Shown here piece after piece: positions 1 to 14,861 of a DNA stretch of 14,861 nucleotides (position 1 is the stretch's first letter; each line of letters begins with the position of its first letter). Origin of the DNA: a bacterium (GTDB taxonomy: Bacteria > UBP15 > UBA6099); contig JAKQPS010000194.1 of assembly GCA_029564595.1 (NCBI GenBank), positions 1-14,861 on the forward strand, read 5' to 3'. The translations under genes and the position numbers were made by a program. The notes beneath the pieces are model-generated. The model was not told the DNA's origin and did not search any database. It was given only the letters and a program-made list of their open reading frames with translations.

Positions 1-141
1 ATTCCTCAGAAAACCTTTCCCAATATCTTTTCACATGCGCGCGGCGGAGCGGAGGCGCGAACGCGCCCGCTTCGACGCGCGCATAGAAATGTTTTGAAAG
101 GGATTTTAAGGGAAAACTTTTTCAAAAGTTTTCCCTTAATC
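1..141 (+). repeat. Left copy of a 141-bp perfect inverted repeat, internally palindromic
   Basis: Positions 1-141 equal the reverse complement of 14721-14861 without a mismatch; position 142 is the first difference. Each copy holds two palindromes. Hairpin I is GC-rich: 35-43 pairs with 76-84, 45-51 with 68-74 (one G:T), and 54-59 with 62-67 around an AA loop, with one mismatch and a 2-nt bulge. Hairpin II is AT-rich and perfect: 16 bp, 106-121 with 124-139, with a TC loop. Further out, CCTTTC at 14-19 can pair with GAAAGG at 96-101. No coding capacity is visible. The layout resembles a dispersed palindromic (REP- or MITE-like) repeat. Because the sequence stops exactly at the repeat, the true element may extend outside the window. 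Confidence 0.9.
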
Positions 142-216: not shown

Positions 217-1719
217 ATGAAATCTCATGATGCCGTCCCGCAGGCGCGGGACGCCGACCTTATGAAAGTCCTGCTTATATTCCCGCCTCCAAGCGACAAG
301 TATTCGCGCGACTATAAAAACGCCATAGGCTCCGGCGTCCCTCTCGGAGTTGCGCACCTTGGTTCCGCGCTGGAACGCAGCGGTTTCGAGGTGGAAGCGT
401 TCGACTTCCAGATTCCCGGCAACACCGACTCGCGTCTGCGGGAAGTATTGCGCGGCGGATTCGGGATGATAGGGCTTTCGGTATTCACGCTTTCAGCGCA
501 TTCGGCATACGACATAATAGGGAAGGCGCGCGAAGCGTCGCCCGGCTCTACGTTTGTGGTCGGGGGCCCGCACCCGACAGCTCTCGGCCCGGCGGTTCTT
601 GATGAGTGCGGCGCGGACGTCGCGGCATTTGGAGAAGGAGAAATCACCATCGTCGAGCTTGCCCGCGCCGTCGCAGCCCGCGAGTCTTTCGACGCGGTGA
701 AAGGAATCGCGTTCAGGCGCGGCGGGGAAATTGTCACGACAGCCCCTCAACCGCCTGTTGAAGACCTCGACACGCTCCCGCCGCCCGCGCTGCATCTTTT
801 CGACATCAAAAAGTACGCGCAGCCCGGAGCCGCGTCGCTTTATTTTCCATCTATCAACATGATAACCAGCAGGGGATGCCCATACGACTGCTCGTTCTGC
901 TTTAAGAAGCTTTGGGGGCCGCGCTGCCGGTTCATGAGCGTGGATCGAGTGATATCCGACATCGCGGAACTGAGGGCGGCACACGGCGCGGGCGAGGTCG
1001 CTTTCTTCGACGACACTTTCACGCTTGACCGCGACCGGGCGCTTTCCCTGTGCGAAAAGATGCTTGAGAAAAAAAAACCGCTGCCGTGGAGATGCAATTC
1101 GAGGGTGGACCGCGTGGACGCCGAATTGCTGGCGCTTATGCGCCGCGCCGGCTGTTACTCCATCGGGTTCGGCATCGAGTCCGGCAACGCCGAAGTTCTA
1201 AAAAAGTGCGGAAAAGGAATTACTCTTGAACAGGTTCGGAACGCCGTAGAGCTTGCCCGCCGTGCGGGAATCGAAAGCCGCGGATATTTCATATTCAATC
1301 TGCACGGGGACACCCGGGAAACGATGGAGGAAACCACGCAGTTCGCGCTGTCGCTTCCGCTCACTGTTGCTAACTTCACGATGGCCCTGCCCTACATCGG
1401 AACGCGGCTCAGAGAGATAGTCGAGAACGATCCCGGCTGCCGGGTGGACTCCGCCCGCTGGAACGACTGGTCTGCGTACTGCGACAAAGAACCGCTTTTC
1501 ACTCAAGGAGATGTGAGAGCGGACGAACTGAAGAAAATCATCTCCCGCGCATACTCTCGCTTCTATCTGCGTCCGTCGTACATCCTGCGCGCGCTAAAGC
1601 GCGTCAACTCCCTCGAACAAGTTAAATCCTACATCTTCGCCGCCGGATGGATACTCGCCACCGCCCTCGCTACTGCCCTCCACCCAAACAAAAAACACCC
1701 TCGGACGCCCTCTGTTTAA
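217..1719 (+). CDS. B12-binding-domain radical SAM protein
   Basis: Predicted cytoplasmic iron-sulfur enzyme that cleaves S-adenosylmethionine to a radical, probably using a cobalamin cofactor. The N-terminal part (residues 16 to about 165) has the Rossmann-like B12-binding fold signature: MKVLLIFPPP at the start and VVGGPHPTALG in the middle. The radical SAM core follows, with the cluster ligands C221-x3-C225-x2-C228 in RGCPYDCSFC. Later blocks typical of this superfamily are FFDDTF, the SAM-contacting GFGIESGN, and GYFIFNLHGDT. The length of 500 residues is normal for these two-domain proteins. ATG 217 has GGAGG at 198-202 upstream, rather far at 14 nt. ATG 262 would give the classical family N-terminus (MKVLLIFPP) but has no clear Shine-Dalgarno. 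The substrate cannot be told from sequence; relatives include methyltransferases and ring-forming or lipid-modifying enzymes. It is a lone gene, and no partner sits beside it in the window. Confidence 0.9.
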   Translation: MKSHDAVPQARDADLMKVLLIFPPPSDKYSRDYKNAIGSGVPLGVAHLGSALERSGFEVEAFDFQIPGNTDSRLREVLRGGFGMIGLSVFTLSAHSAYDIIGKAREASPGSTFVVGGPHPTALGPAVLDECGADVAAFGEGEITIVELARAVAARESFDAVKGIAFRRGGEIVTTAPQPPVEDLDTLPPPALHLFDIKKYAQPGAASLYFPSINMITSRGCPYDCSFCFKKLWGPRCRFMSVDRVISDIAELRAAHGAGEVAFFDDTFTLDRDRALSLCEKMLEKKKPLPWRCNSRVDRVDAELLALMRRAGCYSIGFGIESGNAEVLKKCGKGITLEQVRNAVELARRAGIESRGYFIFNLHGDTRETMEETTQFALSLPLTVANFTMALPYIGTRLREIVENDPGCRVDSARWNDWSAYCDKEPLFTQGDVRADELKKIISRAYSRFYLRPSYILRALKRVNSLEQVKSYIFAAGWILATALATALHPNKKHPRTPSV

Positions 1720-1746
1720 ACTTTTGCTTCCTAGTTTTCTATAGTA

Positions 1747-1776
1747 ATGACAAATTGAATAAGGATATGCTATTAT
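1747..1776 (+). promoter_or_regulatory. Predicted sigma70-type promoter of the helicase cassette
   Basis: ATGACA (1747-1752, 5/6 to the -35 consensus), an 18-bp spacer, then TATTAT (1771-1776, 5/6 to the -10 consensus) preceded by TGC, an extended -10 motif. Transcription would start near 1783, giving a leader of about 80 nt before ATG 1865. It lies in the AT-rich gap between the radical SAM gene and the helicase. AT-rich DNA yields such matches by chance more easily. Confidence 0.5.
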
Positions 1777-1864
1777 GCGTGAGGGAATTGCCGAATGGCT
1801 GTCAATTAGATGATGCAGGAAGAGCAGACGCGTTTATTTGCATTATGAGCATCTCATATCAACG

Positions 1865-4800
1865 ATGAATGAACACATTTTACATTTTTTGCCATCAGTT
1901 GTGCGGGGCGTATATCGCTATGATGATCTCAAGCCTGATTTTGAAAAAAGCGCCCAACTAGATCAGTTTTATGAATCGCGTCTTAATTTCCTTCCTCCAT
2001 ATATCAGAAATCTAATAGAAAGAAACCGCAAACACAGCAACTTATCGCCGCAAAGCAAATCAAACATTTCAAAAGAACCTAGTAACAATCTGCGGAATAA
2101 GAACGCAATTCAGTATGTAACAAGATATCCGAAATTGGAAAAAGAAGAATCATTTTTGGAAAAGCAATTTGTCTACCTTGTCCTATCTCAAATTTTTGAC
2201 ATACATGGTATGCTAAAAGTTGTTCCACAATACAAAGTGGGGCCGTACTACATAGATTTCGGAATCCTTGCAGATAAAAACTACGCAATCGAATTAGACG
2301 GTTTTGGGAAATTTAGAACTTCAAAAGATCTGGACGACTTCCTGAATCGCCAAAACTACATTTTGCAGCAAGGCTGGACGATTTATCGCTATTCGTATAA
2401 CAAAATTATGAAATCAACCGAAGTTGCAAAAGATGAACTGACGCACATTTTTCAAAAAGACAGCATGCTTCGTCAATACCTTTTGCAATGCGGCAATTTG
2501 ATACAGAAAGAGGATGCCGGCGATATTCCAGATGATAGGAACATTGTTAACGCAGTATATAGAATTCAAGACATATTTGTTTCACACATACTGAGCAACA
2601 ACATCAAGGATGACACAGTCAATGTCAAAGACCATTTTGGATTTGGATGGCCAATTGTCGCTCTCTCGCTGAATTATCTTTATGACACGATATATTTTTA
2701 TGAAAGTATTCTTGATATTCGCTTTGAAATCCCCAAAGCAAGGATAGATTGCGGCGGCTCACCTGAACGCATGGCAAAAATCAACGCCAAGATTGATATT
2801 GCGTCGGTAGAAAGTGACAATGCAGTTGTTTTTAACAGCGATAGCATCTTTGACAACAATTTCACCATGCCAGCCCCTGCTAAACTATGCTCTTCCATAA
2901 ATTACAAAAAAAACATGTCTCTTGATAATATCCACAGCAGACTGAACTTCATAACAAGCACAGTATTTAGATATGAAACTGGAACTAATCCGTTTCAGGA
3001 CAAGGTATTGAAAAGATATTTTAGTGGAAAAGACACTCTCGGCATTTCCGCGACAGGCAGCGGCAAATCATTCTGCTTCTGGCTGCCCTCTCTAATAAAA
3101 CCCGGGCTAACCCTTGTTATTTCTCCTTTGCGGACGTTGATGAAAGACCAATTTCTTTCTCTGCTCAATTACGGGATAGCTTCTGTCGCCTACATAAATT
3201 CCGATGTGCACCCGGAAGAACAAAAACGGATTCTACATGAAGCTAAACTCGGCTATATTAGGATGCTTTATATTTCTCCGGAACGTCTTAGAATAAAAAA
3301 GTTCGTTGATGAGCTTTTAGAGCTACAGCAATATACGCCTATAAACTGCTTTGCAATTGACGAAGCTCATTGCATTTCAGAATGGGGACATGATTTCAGA
3401 CCTTCATATCTTAAACTCCCGCAAATAAGAGAATCTCTTTGCGCTGGAAACGAATCCGATATAAGGCTTATCGCTCTTACTGCGACTGCCGGAGAAATGG
3501 TTAAAAGAGACATCGAAGAAATCCTTCACCTGAAAAGCGGGGAATATGGAGACGTGATCAAAGAAAGCATCGCCGACAGAGAGCGTTTCAGCTATCAAAT
3601 TGTCTCTGTTAATGATCCTAAGCACAAAGACAAAACCTATAAAAACATCCTGAAAAAGCAAATTCCTATCTCTCTTAAACACAAGAGTTTCGACAGTCTT
3701 ATGAAGAGCGAAAACAAGAGAGAGGAGAAATCCGTCGGGCTAGTCTTTTGTATTTATGCGGACTCCCACGGAAAGGACGGAATAAACGACGGTGTTCCTC
3801 ATTATCTGTTCTTAACTAAGGATATTGTGGAGCCGTCAGAGCTTTTTAGAATAAAGAATAGAAAAAATCACAACTTTAATCCCGAAGCATATTCAGAAGG
3901 AAGAGTTCGCGGTTTCAGCAGTAAAACGCCGACTTTCTGTCCAAAATGTTTGTCTTATAGATACTGCATGAAATCTTCAATTTCTTTTTCAGACAATGAT
4001 TTTTCGTTTAATGATGACGACGATGACAAATCTCAATCCAGATATTGCATGTACTGCGACAGTTCTTTCAATTCTGAGGATATTGTATCTATTGACAACG
4101 AAACATGGAAAAACCTATTAAGCAGAAATCAAGGAGAATTCAAGCAAAGCAAATTCGACGTTCTTGTTTCAACAAAAGGCTTTGGGATGGGCATTGACAA
4201 GGGAAGCGTTAGATTCGTAGTGCACACATGCCTTTCATCCGGAATGGAAGGATGGTATCAGGAAGTAGGCCGGGCAGGCAGAGACAAAGAACGCGCTCAC
4301 ATTGTCATGCTCACATGCCCTCCATCTGATGAATGCAAAAAACAAATGAGCGAATTGCCAATCCAAAAACCTTCGTGCAGTTACAGAAAGGGGTGCACGT
4401 TCGGCAAGCCCGCTCTATGCGATTACGGCAAGCAGCACATGTTGATTAATTCCAGTTACAAAGGCGCCGAGAATGACGCAATGTGGGCAATATCAACACT
4501 TGAAAAACTCCTTATCAACATGGGCAAATCCCAAAACGGCGGAAGTTATATGTATTCCGGAGAAATGTATTCAGCAAGAGACGAAATCGCTATTTACCGC
4601 CTTATGCTTTTAGGCATAGTTAAGGACTATTCCATTCGCTATGTCGGAAGAAGGCAAATTGTATTCGATATCGACCTTGGTTTTGACTCGTTTGACAATA
4701 GAACGGTTCTCTTGTCGCTTATCCAAGACAAACTCGCTGCTTATTCCCACAAAAGAATGATAGGAGCCAAGGTTATTGACCCTCGCAATCCAAGAAGAAG

Positions 4801-5659
4801 CTTGAGAGACAACTATACGGATTTTGAGACAATTAAAAAAACCAGGAAAAATAAATTTACCAAATTCAACATAATATCATCTGATGACGCTTTTCTAGAG
4901 TTTCTTTACTACTCGCTTCTCGCTATATTGGATCACACTTATAACGATGTTTTGAAAATGAGATATACAATGCTGTACACTCTTCTCTCTGTAGTCAACA
5001 CGACAAGTTGCAGAAGAGCACCTATTCTTCGTTATTTCGGTGAAACCGTAGAAGAATCATACAGATGCGAATCTTGCGACATTTGTCGCCCTGATCTTAA
5101 TTTTCTGGATTCCAGAGTCGCCCCTATTGAGAATAGAAGCGACATGGAGATGGACAAAGAACTGAGTGATTTCTTTGCCAGTGGTAATTATGATTATTTT
5201 CAATTGTCGCGATTAGTTGCCTATTTTAAAGAATATCCGAGTTCCAAATACATGCAGGCAAGAAGAGTTCTTGAAGGAGACCCCAACAACCTTCCCGCGT
5301 TATTTATTTCACGAGAATTTTCACCTCCCGCTGATTTAGGCGGTAACACAAAACGTTTGTTGTCCACAGCAAATCAAAGACTTCAGTTACTGTCAGATGT
5401 TGAAACGCTTTTTGAAACGTCCAAGGACGAATTGAAAACTGACCTTTTACTGCTGCTAAACGAATCAGACACTGTTTGTGACAACGTCGATGGATGGAAT
5501 TTTCTGTTAGTGGAATCCAGCAAAGAGAGACATTTATCTAACAGTAAAGCTCAACTTATGAATGAATGTTTGGATTTTTTTCTTCTTACTGAGGACAATA
5601 TGCTGAAGGATTCCTTGTCCTCAGCTTCAAAAATCATTGGAGAGATGACTAATGCCTGA
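1865..5659 (+). CDS. RecQ-type superfamily 2 helicase with N-terminal Vsr/DUF559-like nuclease domain
   Basis: Predicted ATP-driven 3'-5' DNA helicase fused to a nuclease (1264 residues; E. coli RecQ has about 610). Domains in order: residues about 110-200 carry a PD-(D/E)XK-type core, with D131 in YYIDF, E143 and D145 in IELDG, then R151, and QQGWTIYRY, as in Vsr/DUF559/MTES_1575-like nucleases. Helicase motifs are Walker A ATGSGKS (396-402), VISPLRTLMKDQ, DEAH (499-502), the RecQ aromatic loop CISEWGHDFRP, ALTATA, motif IV at about 624, motif V VSTKGFGMGID (768), and motif VI QEVGRAGRD (799-807). A CxxC...CxxC insert (C692, C695, C728, C731) with five aspartates (717-721) separates motifs IV and V. 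C1049, C1068, C1071 and C1074 (CESCDIC) match the RecQ zinc site. ATG 1865 was chosen although no clear Shine-Dalgarno precedes it; an in-frame TTG at 1838 is the alternative. The 3' end overlaps the coiled-coil gene by 8 bp. A defence or DNA-repair role is inferred. Confidence 0.88.
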   Translation: MNEHILHFLPSVVRGVYRYDDLKPDFEKSAQLDQFYESRLNFLPPYIRNLIERNRKHSNLSPQSKSNISKEPSNNLRNKNAIQYVTRYPKLEKEESFLEKQFVYLVLSQIFDIHGMLKVVPQYKVGPYYIDFGILADKNYAIELDGFGKFRTSKDLDDFLNRQNYILQQGWTIYRYSYNKIMKSTEVAKDELTHIFQKDSMLRQYLLQCGNLIQKEDAGDIPDDRNIVNAVYRIQDIFVSHILSNNIKDDTVNVKDHFGFGWPIVALSLNYLYDTIYFYESILDIRFEIPKARIDCGGSPERMAKINAKIDIASVESDNAVVFNSDSIFDNNFTMPAPAKLCSSINYKKNMSLDNIHSRLNFITSTVFRYETGTNPFQDKVLKRYFSGKDTLGISATGSGKSFCFWLPSLIKPGLTLVISPLRTLMKDQFLSLLNYGIASVAYINSDVHPEEQKRILHEAKLGYIRMLYISPERLRIKKFVDELLELQQYTPINCFAIDEAHCISEWGHDFRPSYLKLPQIRESLCAGNESDIRLIALTATAGEMVKRDIEEILHLKSGEYGDVIKESIADRERFSYQIVSVNDPKHKDKTYKNILKKQIPISLKHKSFDSLMKSENKREEKSVGLVFCIYADSHGKDGINDGVPHYLFLTKDIVEPSELFRIKNRKNHNFNPEAYSEGRVRGFSSKTPTFCPKCLSYRYCMKSSISFSDNDFSFNDDDDDKSQSRYCMYCDSSFNSEDIVSIDNETWKNLLSRNQGEFKQSKFDVLVSTKGFGMGIDKGSVRFVVHTCLSSGMEGWYQEVGRAGRDKERAHIVMLTCPPSDECKKQMSELPIQKPSCSYRKGCTFGKPALCDYGKQHMLINSSYKGAENDAMWAISTLEKLLINMGKSQNGGSYMYSGEMYSARDEIAIYRLMLLGIVKDYSIRYVGRRQIVFDIDLGFDSFDNRTVLLSLIQDKLAAYSHKRMIGAKVIDPRNPRRSLRDNYTDFETIKKTRKNKFTKFNIISSDDAFLEFLYYSLLAILDHTYNDVLKMRYTMLYTLLSVVNTTSCRRAPILRYFGETVEESYRCESCDICRPDLNFLDSRVAPIENRSDMEMDKELSDFFASGNYDYFQLSRLVAYFKEYPSSKYMQARRVLEGDPNNLPALFISREFSPPADLGGNTKRLLSTANQRLQLLSDVETLFETSKDELKTDLLLLLNESDTVCDNVDGWNFLLVESSKERHLSNSKAQLMNECLDFFLLTEDNMLKDSLSSASKIIGEMTNA

Positions 5660-6872
5660 GATTACCAGCGTTGAAAATATTCGAAGCAAACTATCCGAGT
5701 TTCAAAATAGCATAATTGCGATTTCTGAAATAAAAAGTCAACTCGACAAGCATCTCCAACATGTCGAGAGTCATATTAAAGAATTTCAAACAGTGATCGA
5801 GCTTGCGAAGGCCACTGAGAAAATTGTGGCTGATTCAAACAGGGCATGGGAAAAACTTAGACACGAGACGAACGAAGTTAATAAGACAGCTAAATCAACA
5901 AACGAAAAATCTATATCCCAATTAAAAGACGTCGAGAATAAAATTGCTGCGGCCGAATCGCGTGTCGCTTCAGAGATAAAAGATTCATTCAAAGCTTACG
6001 AGGAGAAAATTACAGAATACGACGCCTCCATAACTGAGAGATTTTCTTTCATACGCGAGAAAGCGGACCATATTCTTGGGCAGGCGCAGATGGTTGAAAC
6101 GGCTGTCAGTTCAGCTGAATCAAATTTAAAAAACAGTATAGACGAATGGAAACACTCACAAGCAAAATCAGTTGAAATCAGAATCAACGACCTACAAAAT
6201 GATGTAATCAAGAAAATCTCAAGCTATGTGGCAGACTTGCAAAACGCGATGCAAAAGATGTCCATAACAAATGAAAAAGAAGCGCAAGCACGGATATTGG
6301 AGCTTTCAGACAAGCATGGCGCCTTGATAGATGGTTTTATTGAAACTCAAAAATCGGAACAATCCTCTTTTTTAAATAAATTATCAAATTCTGAAGATGA
6401 AACAAAAAAAACAGTCCAGAGTTTTGTCGAAGAACAGGCAAGCGCTTTTAAAACTTTTAAATCTCTAATCCAATCAAAACATAACGATTTTGAGAAAACA
6501 AACCAAGCATCTTTACTTTCTTTTATGAACAGACACGAAACGATTTTAAAAAGTGTGAATACCCAAATGGACACATATTCCAATTCTTCACAACTGTTCA
6601 CTTCAAAAATTGAATCTTTGAAGCACGAGATGGTTGAGTTATTAAAAAAAATCCGGCTTCAACAACAAAAAGAAAATCTTGCCGCTGCCAAAAGCTCCGA
6701 AGACATGATTGCAAAACTGAAGGATGAGGCTATTGCGGAAGCAGAGGTAAAGACTCAACAACTGATAAACCAAGTTAAAACTGATTGCAACAATCGGATT
6801 TTAGCAATTGAAGACGAATTGGAGCAAATCAAAAAACGCGGTGTCATTGGCAAATTCTTCGGTTCAAAATAA
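5652..6872 (+). CDS. Coiled-coil protein, partner of the helicase
   Basis: I do not recognise a named family. The 406-residue product is almost entirely charged, helical and heptad-like, rich in K, E, Q, S and A, with few prolines or aromatics. It has no signal peptide and no membrane span. This indicates a long cytoplasmic coiled coil, likely to oligomerise or form a rod. The last residues, KKRGVIGKFFGSK, form a short basic, hydrophobic tail unlike the rest and could be a docking or membrane-contact peptide. Its ATG lies inside the last codons of the helicase gene (8-bp overlap), with GGAGAG at 5639-5644 seven bases upstream, so translation is probably coupled and the two proteins probably act together. 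Base composition is AT-rich like the helicase. A structural, scaffolding or sensor role for the helicase-nuclease is inference from operon structure only. Generic similarity to other coiled coils will confuse searches. Confidence 0.8.
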   Translation: MPEITSVENIRSKLSEFQNSIIAISEIKSQLDKHLQHVESHIKEFQTVIELAKATEKIVADSNRAWEKLRHETNEVNKTAKSTNEKSISQLKDVENKIAAAESRVASEIKDSFKAYEEKITEYDASITERFSFIREKADHILGQAQMVETAVSSAESNLKNSIDEWKHSQAKSVEIRINDLQNDVIKKISSYVADLQNAMQKMSITNEKEAQARILELSDKHGALIDGFIETQKSEQSSFLNKLSNSEDETKKTVQSFVEEQASAFKTFKSLIQSKHNDFEKTNQASLLSFMNRHETILKSVNTQMDTYSNSSQLFTSKIESLKHEMVELLKKIRLQQQKENLAAAKSSEDMIAKLKDEAIAEAEVKTQQLINQVKTDCNNRILAIEDELEQIKKRGVIGKFFGSK

Positions 6873-6898
6873 ACCCAAATACTTCGGTAGCGACGGAG

Positions 6899-6926
6899 CG
6901 AGAATTACGCTTCTTTCTCGGTTTTT
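6899..6926 (+). terminator. Possible intrinsic terminator after the coiled-coil gene
   Basis: CGAGAA (6899-6904) pairs with TTCTCG (6915-6920) around a 10-nt loop and is followed by GTTTTT (6921-6926). It lies 26 nt past the stop of the coiled-coil gene, in the 120-bp gap between convergent transcription units. The stem is only 6 bp, so it is weak. Confidence 0.4.
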
Positions 6927-6992
6927 CAATCAACCAGACATAATTACCGTCTCGTAGTAGCCCTATACTTGCCGAAGCGGGCTAAATTCTTT

Positions 6993-7958
6993 TCAGAGTT
7001 TTGTTTTCGTTTCTAAGATAGGCGCGTTCTTGCGGCGCAGATGCCATGAGAACAATCGTTTGTAGTGGGAAGCGCGGGCGGAGAGGGATGCCCGGCGGGA
7101 TGGAGAAATCAGTGCGGCGGCTGTGAACGCGGCGACGCGAAACGCTGCGCCTGCCATGTTCAACAATGCCGCGGCGGCGGCGGCGGGCGCGCCGTAATGT
7201 TTCCGGTAGAATAAAAGCAGCGAGGAATAGAACCTGTTCATTTTGTCGTGGCCGAGGAGGCCTTCGCTGCCTCCGCCGATGTGGAGAACGTCGGCAACCG
7301 GGGCGAACCAGACTTCCCATCCGGCGCGCCTGAAGCGCAGACACCAGTCATGATCCTCGAAATACATGAAGAAGCGCTCGTCGAGTGGGCCGACGTCTGC
7401 GACTGCGGAGCGGCGGGCCATCAGGCAGGCTCCTGAAAGAGAGGGGACGCGGCGCGCGGCGTCGTGCGCCCACCGCTTGAAGCCTCCGAACGTTTCGCTG
7501 GCGGGAAATATCGAGCTGATGAAAAAAGCGTCCCACAGCAGCACGCTCAGAGTGGGCGCGCGGAAGCAAGACTCCTGAACCGAGCCGTCCGGGTTTAGGA
7601 GTCTCGGCCCGGCAAGCCCCGCGCGAGGGTTGGAGCGCATGAAGTCCGCCATCGCGTCCAGCGCTCCCGGCGAAAGCTCCGCGTCGTTGTTGAGAAGAAG
7701 GAAGAACTCGCCCGACGCCGCGCTCATGGCTTTGTTCTGGTTGGCGGCGAATCCCAAAGGAGCGGCGTTTTCGATGACGAGCGCGGAAGGATATTTTTCG
7801 CGCGTCATCGCGGCGCTTCCGTCGCGAGACGCGTTGTCCACCACGATAACTTCGAAGGAAGCGCGGGCCGGCGGGGCGGCGTAAATCGAGAGCAGACAGC
7901 GGTCCAGCATGTCCCTGCCGTTGTGGTTCGCTATGGTGATTGAGATATCGGCCGGCAT
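6993..7958 (-). CDS. Family 2 glycosyltransferase (rhamnosyltransferase-like)
   Basis: Transfers a sugar from a nucleotide-sugar donor to an envelope or exported glycan; the exact sugar is unknown. The 321-residue protein opens with the GT2 nucleotide-binding strand ISITIANHNG. It then has VVDNASRDGS (D41), LGFAANQN, the metal-binding LLLNNDAEL (N90-D92, in the DXD position), GPRLLNPDGSVQES, a GACLMARR block, and the acceptor-side acidic motif YFEDHDWCLR (E200, D201, D203), as in the GT-A rhamnosyltransferase group. A hydrophobic stretch near residues 255-283 (Ala-rich, ending before SPSRR) may contact the membrane. It is the last gene of a minus-strand operon, 45 bp after the small 77-codon gene, with a weak ribosome binding site. 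Its position after a DUF2723/TPR membrane protein suggests both act on the same glycoconjugate or glycoprotein. Confidence 0.9.
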   Translation of the reverse strand: MPADISITIANHNGRDMLDRCLLSIYAAPPARASFEVIVVDNASRDGSAAMTREKYPSALVIENAAPLGFAANQNKAMSAASGEFFLLLNNDAELSPGALDAMADFMRSNPRAGLAGPRLLNPDGSVQESCFRAPTLSVLLWDAFFISSIFPASETFGGFKRWAHDAARRVPSLSGACLMARRSAVADVGPLDERFFMYFEDHDWCLRFRRAGWEVWFAPVADVLHIGGGSEGLLGHDKMNRFYSSLLLFYRKHYGAPAAAAAALLNMAGAAFRVAAFTAAALISPSRRASLSARASHYKRLFSWHLRRKNAPILETKTKL

Positions 7959-14720: not shown

Positions 14721-14861
14721 GATTAAGGGAAAACTTTTGAAAAAGTTTTCCCTTAAAATCCCTTTCAAAACATTTCTATGCGCGCGTCGAAGCGGGCGCG
14801 TTCGCGCCTCCGCTCCGCCGCGCGCATGTGAAAAGATATTGGGAAAGGTTTTCTGAGGAAT
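14721..14861 (-). repeat. Right copy of the 141-bp perfect inverted repeat
   Basis: Exact reverse complement of 1-141. The AT-rich perfect hairpin is at 14723-14756 and the GC-rich hairpin at 14778-14827. The AT-rich hairpin lies 38 nt after the MaoC stop codon and could act as a transcription stop, though no T-run follows it. The sequence ends exactly at the end of the repeat. Confidence 0.9.

What the first reader, a model, noticed from the sequence alone, without database searches (positions are those of the whole stretch)
1720..6872. AT-rich two-gene cassette: nuclease-RecQ helicase plus coiled-coil partner
Seen: a sharp GC drop, an own extended -10 promoter, two genes with an 8-bp overlap, and a terminator-like hairpin at the end. 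The first product joins a restriction-type nuclease core to a large RecQ-type helicase; the second is a pure coiled coil. Known: many anti-phage and anti-plasmid systems are compact helicase/nuclease operons with biased base composition. None of the hallmark partners of Zorya, DISARM, Druantia, BREX, Wadjet or CRISPR is seen. Inference: this could be a little-described defence module.
Basis: partly seen in the sequence, partly recalled or inferred. Interest (0 to 1): 0.72.

Follow-up and report, generated by a model that had tools for sequence, protein, structure and literature searches.

The report
Nuclease-RecQ helicase with coiled-coil partner
A foreign two-gene cassette pairs a DNA-cutting, DNA-unwinding enzyme with a rod-shaped partner protein; the same pair turns up scattered over more than a dozen bacterial and archaeal phyla, matches no named system tested here, and is most likely an undescribed weapon against invading DNA.

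Summary
A 37-40% GC block in a 58-62% GC contig carries two genes overlapping by 8 bp: a Vsr/DUF559-type nuclease fused to a RecQ-family helicase, and a 406-aa heptad-periodic coiled coil. It is a recent insertion: three congeners have the flanking genes adjacent, with about 80 bp in place of about 5.4 kb, and no other genome of the phylum held has the helicase. A family-specific motif (TKG[FY]GMG[IV]DK) found 66 loci among 84,980 species. In 33 of 37 readable loci the gene after the helicase is a coiled coil (6 of 175 control pairs). A tree places the window's helicase inside a Pseudomonadota/Thermodesulfobacteriota clade. The coiled coil ends in a transmembrane helix in 17 loci and, in the window's branch, in a short tail, mostly basic and hydrophobic. 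Some relatives share operons with methyltransferase/SNF2/YprA-helicase or ShosTA-like genes; others lie beside Gabija, BREX or PD-T4-4. However, a small matched control did not show enrichment near defence genes. The models of named systems that were run, and the papers held, do not describe this pair. Best reading: a nuclease-helicase module against foreign DNA with its own coiled-coil scaffold or anchor. Architecture and linkage are shown; function and mechanism are inferred.

The parts
1656..7019 (.). Inserted segment; in three congeners about 80 bp lies here and the flanking genes are neighbours
   Evidence: blastn of window against L107/L108/L109: left match ends at 1655, right match starts at 7020-7025; flanking genes 91-96% identical
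1747..1776 (+). Promoter-like site with extended -10 (ATGACA-18-TATTAT)
   Evidence: consensus match only
1865..5659 (+). Gene 1: nuclease-RecQ helicase (1264 aa from ATG 1865; open from TTG 1838)
   Evidence: start chosen from homologue N-termini
2144..2467 (+). Vsr/DUF559-like nuclease domain (aa 103-210 of the 1273-aa numbering); E108, P130, Q131, D140, E152, G155, R171, Q172 invariant
   Evidence: VIA Z 10.2 to I-Bth0305I, 9.8 to 3hrl, 8.4 to Vsr
2987..3502 (+). Helicase RecA1 domain (DEAD, aa 384-555; Walker A TGSGK 406-410, DEAH 508-511)
3938..4057 (+). Predicted zinc-ribbon insert in the helicase C-lobe (C701, C704, C737, C740)
   Evidence: invariant cysteines in the four-sequence alignment; regex hits in many loci
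4172..4201 (+). Family signature TKGFGMGIDK used for the collection scan
4955..5089 (+). RecQ zinc-binding-like region (CRR...YRCESCDICRPDL)
   Evidence: Pfam PF16124, alignment
5652..6872 (+). Gene 2: 406-aa coiled-coil partner, N-terminus MPEITSVENIRSKL shared with relatives
6831..6869 (+). Basic/hydrophobic C-terminal tail (KKRGVIGKFFGSK) at the place where other branches have a transmembrane helix
6899..6920 (+). Hairpin with following U run, weak terminator candidate
   Evidence: z -0.42

Best explanation
A horizontally acquired two-gene module against foreign DNA. Gene 1 is a single-chain nuclease-helicase: a Vsr/DUF559-like nuclease, an alpha/beta linker domain, a RecQ-type helicase core with a zinc-ribbon insert, and a helical C-terminus. 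Gene 2 is its dedicated coiled-coil partner. Proposed working (inferred): the coiled coil oligomerises the enzyme and, by a C-terminal transmembrane helix in some branches or an amphipathic basic tail in the window's branch, holds it near the membrane; the helicase loads on ends or single-stranded stretches of invading or replicating phage or plasmid DNA, unwinds it, and the nuclease cuts it. Shown: domain content, conserved catalytic residues, pairing, horizontal spread, recent insertion. Inferred: the target, the anchor role, and that it protects the cell.
For: Conserved pairing with overlapping genes across phyla. Patchy: 66 stretches among 84,980 species, absent from six relatives in the phylum. 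Nested in a clade of other phyla, and empty site in three congeners. Nuclease residues invariant over 20 sequences including archaea, nuclease fold, RecQ core (Z 27). In the Planctomycete locus the nuclease is a separate gene just upstream of a nuclease-less helicase. Operons elsewhere with N6-methyltransferase, SNF2 and Druantia/ARMADA-like YprA helicase (Thermus) or YprA-like helicase/PRTase and DprA (Deinococcus); neighbours Gabija, BREX, PD-T4-4. Coiled-coil ends: transmembrane helix in 17 loci.
Against: The matched control found defence genes in random regions of the same genomes at a similar rate. Some relatives lack the nuclease (L002, L003, L011, L062/L066, L027). Several loci sit with replication or partition genes (Toprim/DUF3987 primase, PolA, ParB), which a mobile element would also need. 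No phage or plasmid challenge data. Membrane anchoring in the window's branch rests on a short tail only.
Confidence: 0.58

Rival explanations
1. It is cargo that serves mobile elements: a helicase-nuclease used for replication, partition or counter-defence of plasmids and integrative elements, with the coiled coil as a structural partner.
For: Adjacent ParB genes in Thermus and Desulfamplus, primase-PolA-metallopeptidase genes upstream in Contendobacter; several members on megaplasmids.
Against: No integrase or replication gene in the window cassette, which stands alone between two metabolic genes. Contexts vary widely while the pair stays. No exact motif match in 2.9 million viral contigs. 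Methyltransferase and known defence genes sit beside several members.
Confidence: 0.2
2. It is an accessory DNA-repair or recombination enzyme of the cell, a specialised RecQ, not aimed at invaders.
For: Helicase core scores above the RecQ-family cut-off and matches RecQ1/RecQ structures; some members sit next to gyrase genes (L062, L066).
Against: Rare and patchy, moved between phyla, fused or linked to an endonuclease with intact residues, AT-rich recent insert.
Confidence: 0.12
3. It is a toxin-antitoxin-like pair: the nuclease-helicase harms the cell when active and the coiled coil restrains it until infection.
For: Overlapping gene pair; RecQ-like RqlH is genotoxic and held in check by a partner gene (PMC4670107 as listed, PMC9122126); in Deinococcus the pair shares an operon with ShosA-like DprA and PRTase genes.
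Against: The usual antitoxin (DprA) is absent here and in most loci; coiled-coil partners carry membrane helices, more like an anchor or scaffold.
Confidence: 0.1

Closest known systems
PsyrTA / RqlHI / ShosTA
   Same: RecQ-like helicase at the centre of a small operon with an antiphage or toxic role; PADLOC PsyrT matches the helicase part (E 1e-64)
   Different: No DprA and no phosphoribosyltransferase in the window; has an N-terminal nuclease, zinc insert and coiled-coil partner instead
DpdF of the Dpd 7-deazaguanine system
   Same: RecQ-type helicase; best PADLOC matches are DpdF models
   Different: Scores 146 against the NCBIfam DpdF cut-off of 550; the cassette has no other Dpd gene; matched stretches are the generic helicase lobes
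Hachiman (HamAB), AbpAB
   Same: Two-gene nuclease plus helicase systems; AbpAB genes also overlap (PMC12278908 and PMC10732053)
   Different: Nuclease and helicase families differ, nuclease fused to the helicase here, second gene is a coiled coil; no HamB match among the listed hits of the window's protein
ARMADA / Druantia / DISARM (YprA-helicase systems)
   Same: Thermus relatives lie in one co-directional array with SNF2 helicase, methyltransferase and a Druantia-like YprA helicase
   Different: The window cassette has none of these genes; the preprint on YprA systems (PMC12458937) does not contain the word RecQ
CoCoNuTs (coiled-coil nuclease tandems, type IV restriction)
   Same: Coiled coil coupled to a nuclease (PMC11090510)
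   Different: No McrB GTPase or McrC; SF2 RecQ helicase instead
Vsr / DUF559 / I-Bth0305I nucleases
   Same: Fold and active-site pattern of the N-terminal domain
   Different: Those structures are small stand-alone or homing nucleases; here the domain is fused to a helicase

Membership tests
RecQ family helicases (TIGR00614 subfamily) | Score above the curated subfamily cut-off | tested here: met
   252.2 against 219.8 bits; structure Z 27 to RecQ1
Canonical DNA helicase RecQ (TIGR01389) | Score above the equivalog cut-off | tested here: not met
   281.4 against 640.2 bits
DUF559 nuclease family (PF04480) | Score above the gathering cut-off, with conserved acidic residues | tested here: met
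   23.1 against 20.6 bits; D140 and E152 invariant. The sister model PF18741 is below its cut-off (31.7 against 38.2)
Dpd system (DpdF) | DpdF equivalog score | tested here: not met
   146.4 against 550 bits
Dpd system (DpdF) | Other dpd genes beside it | tested here: not met
   Neighbours in the window are radical SAM, glycosyltransferase, TPR, thioredoxin, oxidoreductase and MaoC-like genes
PsyrTA / RqlHI / ShosTA | DprA-like partner and phosphoribosyltransferase | tested here: not met
   No such match for either window protein; present only in the Deinococcus relative
Hachiman | HamA nuclease and HamB helicase | tested here: not met
   No HamA or HamB model among the 24 families matching gene 1 or the 7 matching gene 2 at E up to 1
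ARMADA / DISARM / Druantia | YprA helicase with SNF2 helicase and methyltransferase or Dru partners | tested here: not met
   Absent from the window; generic helicase matches to DruE/DrmA only at E 1e-5 or worse
Zorya | ZorA/ZorB motor with ZorD or ZorE | tested here: not met
   Only a marginal coiled-coil match of gene 2 to ZorA (E 0.008); no ZorB or ZorD
Antiphage defence system (any) | Protects cells against phage or plasmid | not testable with these tools
   Needs a challenge experiment
Antiphage defence system (any) | Enriched beside known defence genes | tested here: inconclusive
   Clear neighbours at several loci but similar hits in 17 random regions

The most novel reading that the evidence does not exclude
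A widespread, undescribed family of immune systems in which a coiled coil, anchored by a transmembrane helix or an exchangeable membrane-binding tail, positions a nuclease-RecQ enzyme at the membrane to destroy DNA as it enters; methyltransferase-bearing versions would be a restriction-like branch and the two-gene version a methylation-free branch.
Probability: 0.35. Interest if true: 0.8.

Novelty: new variant of a known kind. Interest (0 to 1): 0.6.

Why it matters
If confirmed, it adds a nuclease-helicase immune family found in bacteria and archaea that the 2023 PADLOC models mislabel as DpdF or PsyrT by its helicase lobes. The exchange between a transmembrane helix and a soluble tail on the partner would make the question of how such enzymes find incoming DNA directly testable. 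It also supplies a simple signature (TKG[FY]GMG[IV]DK followed by a coiled coil) for annotating these genes.

Tried and rejected
Membership in Dpd or PsyrTA suggested by PADLOC E-values was rejected: the matches are separate stretches of the helicase lobes and the DpdF equivalog cut-off is missed. Viral origin: three scans of viral contigs found no relative. Enrichment in defence islands looked convincing by eye but the matched control with 132 ORFs from 17 random regions also hit BREX, type I restriction and CARF models, so it is not claimed; one control region (L124) gave no usable ORFs, the largest control ORFs were left out for a size limit, and my coiled-coil filter seems to have dropped the PD-T4-4 ATPase of L081 from the neighbour set. 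Transposon insertion: no target duplication or transposase at the junctions; the last residues of the radical SAM protein differ from the congeners, so the left joint lies inside that gene. The coiled coil is not a member of any Pfam, NCBIfam or PADLOC family above cut-off; its hits are generic. The structure searches left the alpha/beta linker (aa about 233-340) and the C-terminal helices without a clear match; that was not pursued. Literature searches found no paper on this pair in the held library, which lacks most subscription journals.

Full report
What is there. The window is one whole contig (C69) of a 4.4-Mb draft genome in a phylum with only seven genomes held. Between a radical SAM gene and a glycosyltransferase gene lies a 37-40% GC block in 58-62% GC surroundings. 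It holds two genes in one direction that overlap by 8 bp. Homologues start at MNPLxRHFxPSxxRGVYR, so gene 1 most likely starts at ATG 1865 and not at the mechanical TTG 1838. A promoter-like site with an extended -10 lies at 1747-1776. The hairpin at 6899-6920 is no more stable than shuffled sequence.

Gene 1. Residues 103-210 form a nuclease domain: DUF559 passes its Pfam cut-off and MTES_1575 comes close; in the predicted model this part matches the I-Bth0305I catalytic domain (Z 10.2, 95 residues, 2.4 A), the DUF559-like protein 3hrl (Z 9.8) and Vsr (Z 8.4), and a profile finds 3hrl by sequence (E 0.004). E108, P130, Q131, D140, E152, G155, R171 and Q172 are invariant over 20 sequences including archaeal ones. 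Residues of about 360-1090 are a RecQ-type core (252 bits against a 219.8 cut-off; Z 27 to RecQ1). A four-cysteine zinc-ribbon-like insert lies in the second lobe (C701, C704, C737, C740).

Gene 2. It is almost pure coiled coil: one proline in 406 residues, periodicity z 8.8-10.1 over shuffles. Relatives share the N-terminus MPEITSxxxIxxKLxEF and a central FLxRQNxLxQNLTQQID block. The C-terminus is a transmembrane helix in 17 loci of other branches and a short tail in the window's branch, mostly basic and hydrophobic (KKRGVIGKFFGSK; VGGKFKS; IGGKFK).

How it came here. In three congeners the two flanking genes (91-96% identical) are neighbours; left matches end at window base 1655 and right matches begin at 7020-7025, with about 80 bp between. 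No relative in the phylum has the helicase. There is no transposase and no evident target duplication; the last residues of the radical SAM protein are changed.

Family. The signature TKG[FY]GMG[IV]DK gave 66 stretches in 84,980 species; no viral contig had it. A tree of 69 helicases splits into a clade of 19 mostly large helicases without coiled-coil partner, rich in Chloroflexota, often beside DUF1848 genes, and a clade of 50 that holds the window. That clade covers at least 15 named phyla including archaea. The window sits within Pseudomonadota and Thermodesulfobacteriota sequences (starred set of 11 rows). The gene after the helicase is a coiled coil in 33 of 37 loci, against 6 of 175 other adjacent pairs in the same loci (Fisher 4e-28); the loci are related, so the p-value overstates independence, but the branches are deep. 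The nuclease is in cis in most loci of this clade that can be read there, absent in some, preceded by an RNase T-type exonuclease domain in one (L083), and a separate upstream gene in the Planctomycete (L089).

Neighbourhoods. On a Thermus plasmid the genes form one co-directional array: ParB, nuclease-RecQ, (transposase gene), coiled coil, small protein, SNF2 helicase, methyltransferase pieces, YprA-type helicase; in Thermus altitudinis the coiled coil is followed directly by an Eco57I-type methyltransferase. In Deinococcus wulumuqiensis the pair stands between a YprA-like helicase with PRTase and a DprA. GajA and GajB of Gabija lie within about 2 kb of the pair in L076, BrxA-BrxB-BrxC lie downstream in L088, PD-T4-4-like genes just upstream in L081. 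A control was then run: PADLOC hits at E 1e-50 among 128 neighbouring ORFs (Gabija, BREX, SNF2, candidate systems) and among 132 ORFs of random regions of the same genomes (BREX, type I restriction, CARF regulators, a methyltransferase) were of the same order. Enrichment is therefore not shown at this sample size.

Comparison with known systems. It fails the DpdF equivalog cut-off, lacks DprA/PRTase of PsyrTA or ShosTA, lacks HamA/HamB, YprA/SNF2/methyltransferase, McrBC and Zorya motor genes. The held literature has nuclease-helicase systems (Hachiman PMC12278908, AbpAB PMC10732053), YprA systems (PMC12458937) and coiled-coil nucleases (PMC11090510), but no paper found describes this pair. 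It works like a two-component nuclease-helicase defence; it is not filed as a member of any of them.

Mechanism. Shown: domains, conserved residues, strong pairing, mobility. Inferred: DNA ends or single-stranded DNA as trigger, unwinding coupled to cutting, coiled coil as oligomeric scaffold and membrane tether. Confidence in a role against foreign DNA is about 0.58; a service role for mobile elements (0.2), a cellular repair role (0.12) and a toxin-antitoxin-like arrangement (0.1) remain open.

Noticed in passing
window 25-141 and 14721-14837 (inverted copies): A 117-bp palindromic repeat at both contig ends has dozens of copies in the genome (104 matches listed, many of them the two arms of one copy) and holds a strong AAGGGAAAACTTTTGAAAAAGTTTTCCCTT hairpin; it also occurs in congeners and probably broke the assembly.
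   Followed up: partly
L019, L025, L030, L031, L046, L055, L069 (also L015, L048): The large-helicase sister clade has a DUF1848 gene nearby, often directly upstream, in many loci; a second conserved and apparently undescribed pair.
   Followed up: partly
L003:2642-13503 (Deinococcus wulumuqiensis pDrdI): Five-gene operon joining a YprA-like helicase with HAD and PRTase parts, the RecQ-coiled-coil pair and a HAD-DprA fusion, a composite of ShosTA-like and the present family; L022 has a similarly large upstream gene.
   Followed up: partly
L072:2067-8011: Toprim_3/DUF3987 primase, family A DNA polymerase and an M78-type metallopeptidase gene directly upstream of the pair, suggesting a mobile-element context.
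   Followed up: partly
L015:1162-1434 and L026:2491-2781: A SpoVG-like gene follows the coiled coil in a Neomarinimicrobiota and a Melioribacter locus.
   Followed up: no
window 1656-1719: The last residues of the radical SAM protein differ from all congeners because of the insertion; whether the enzyme still works is unknown.
   Followed up: no
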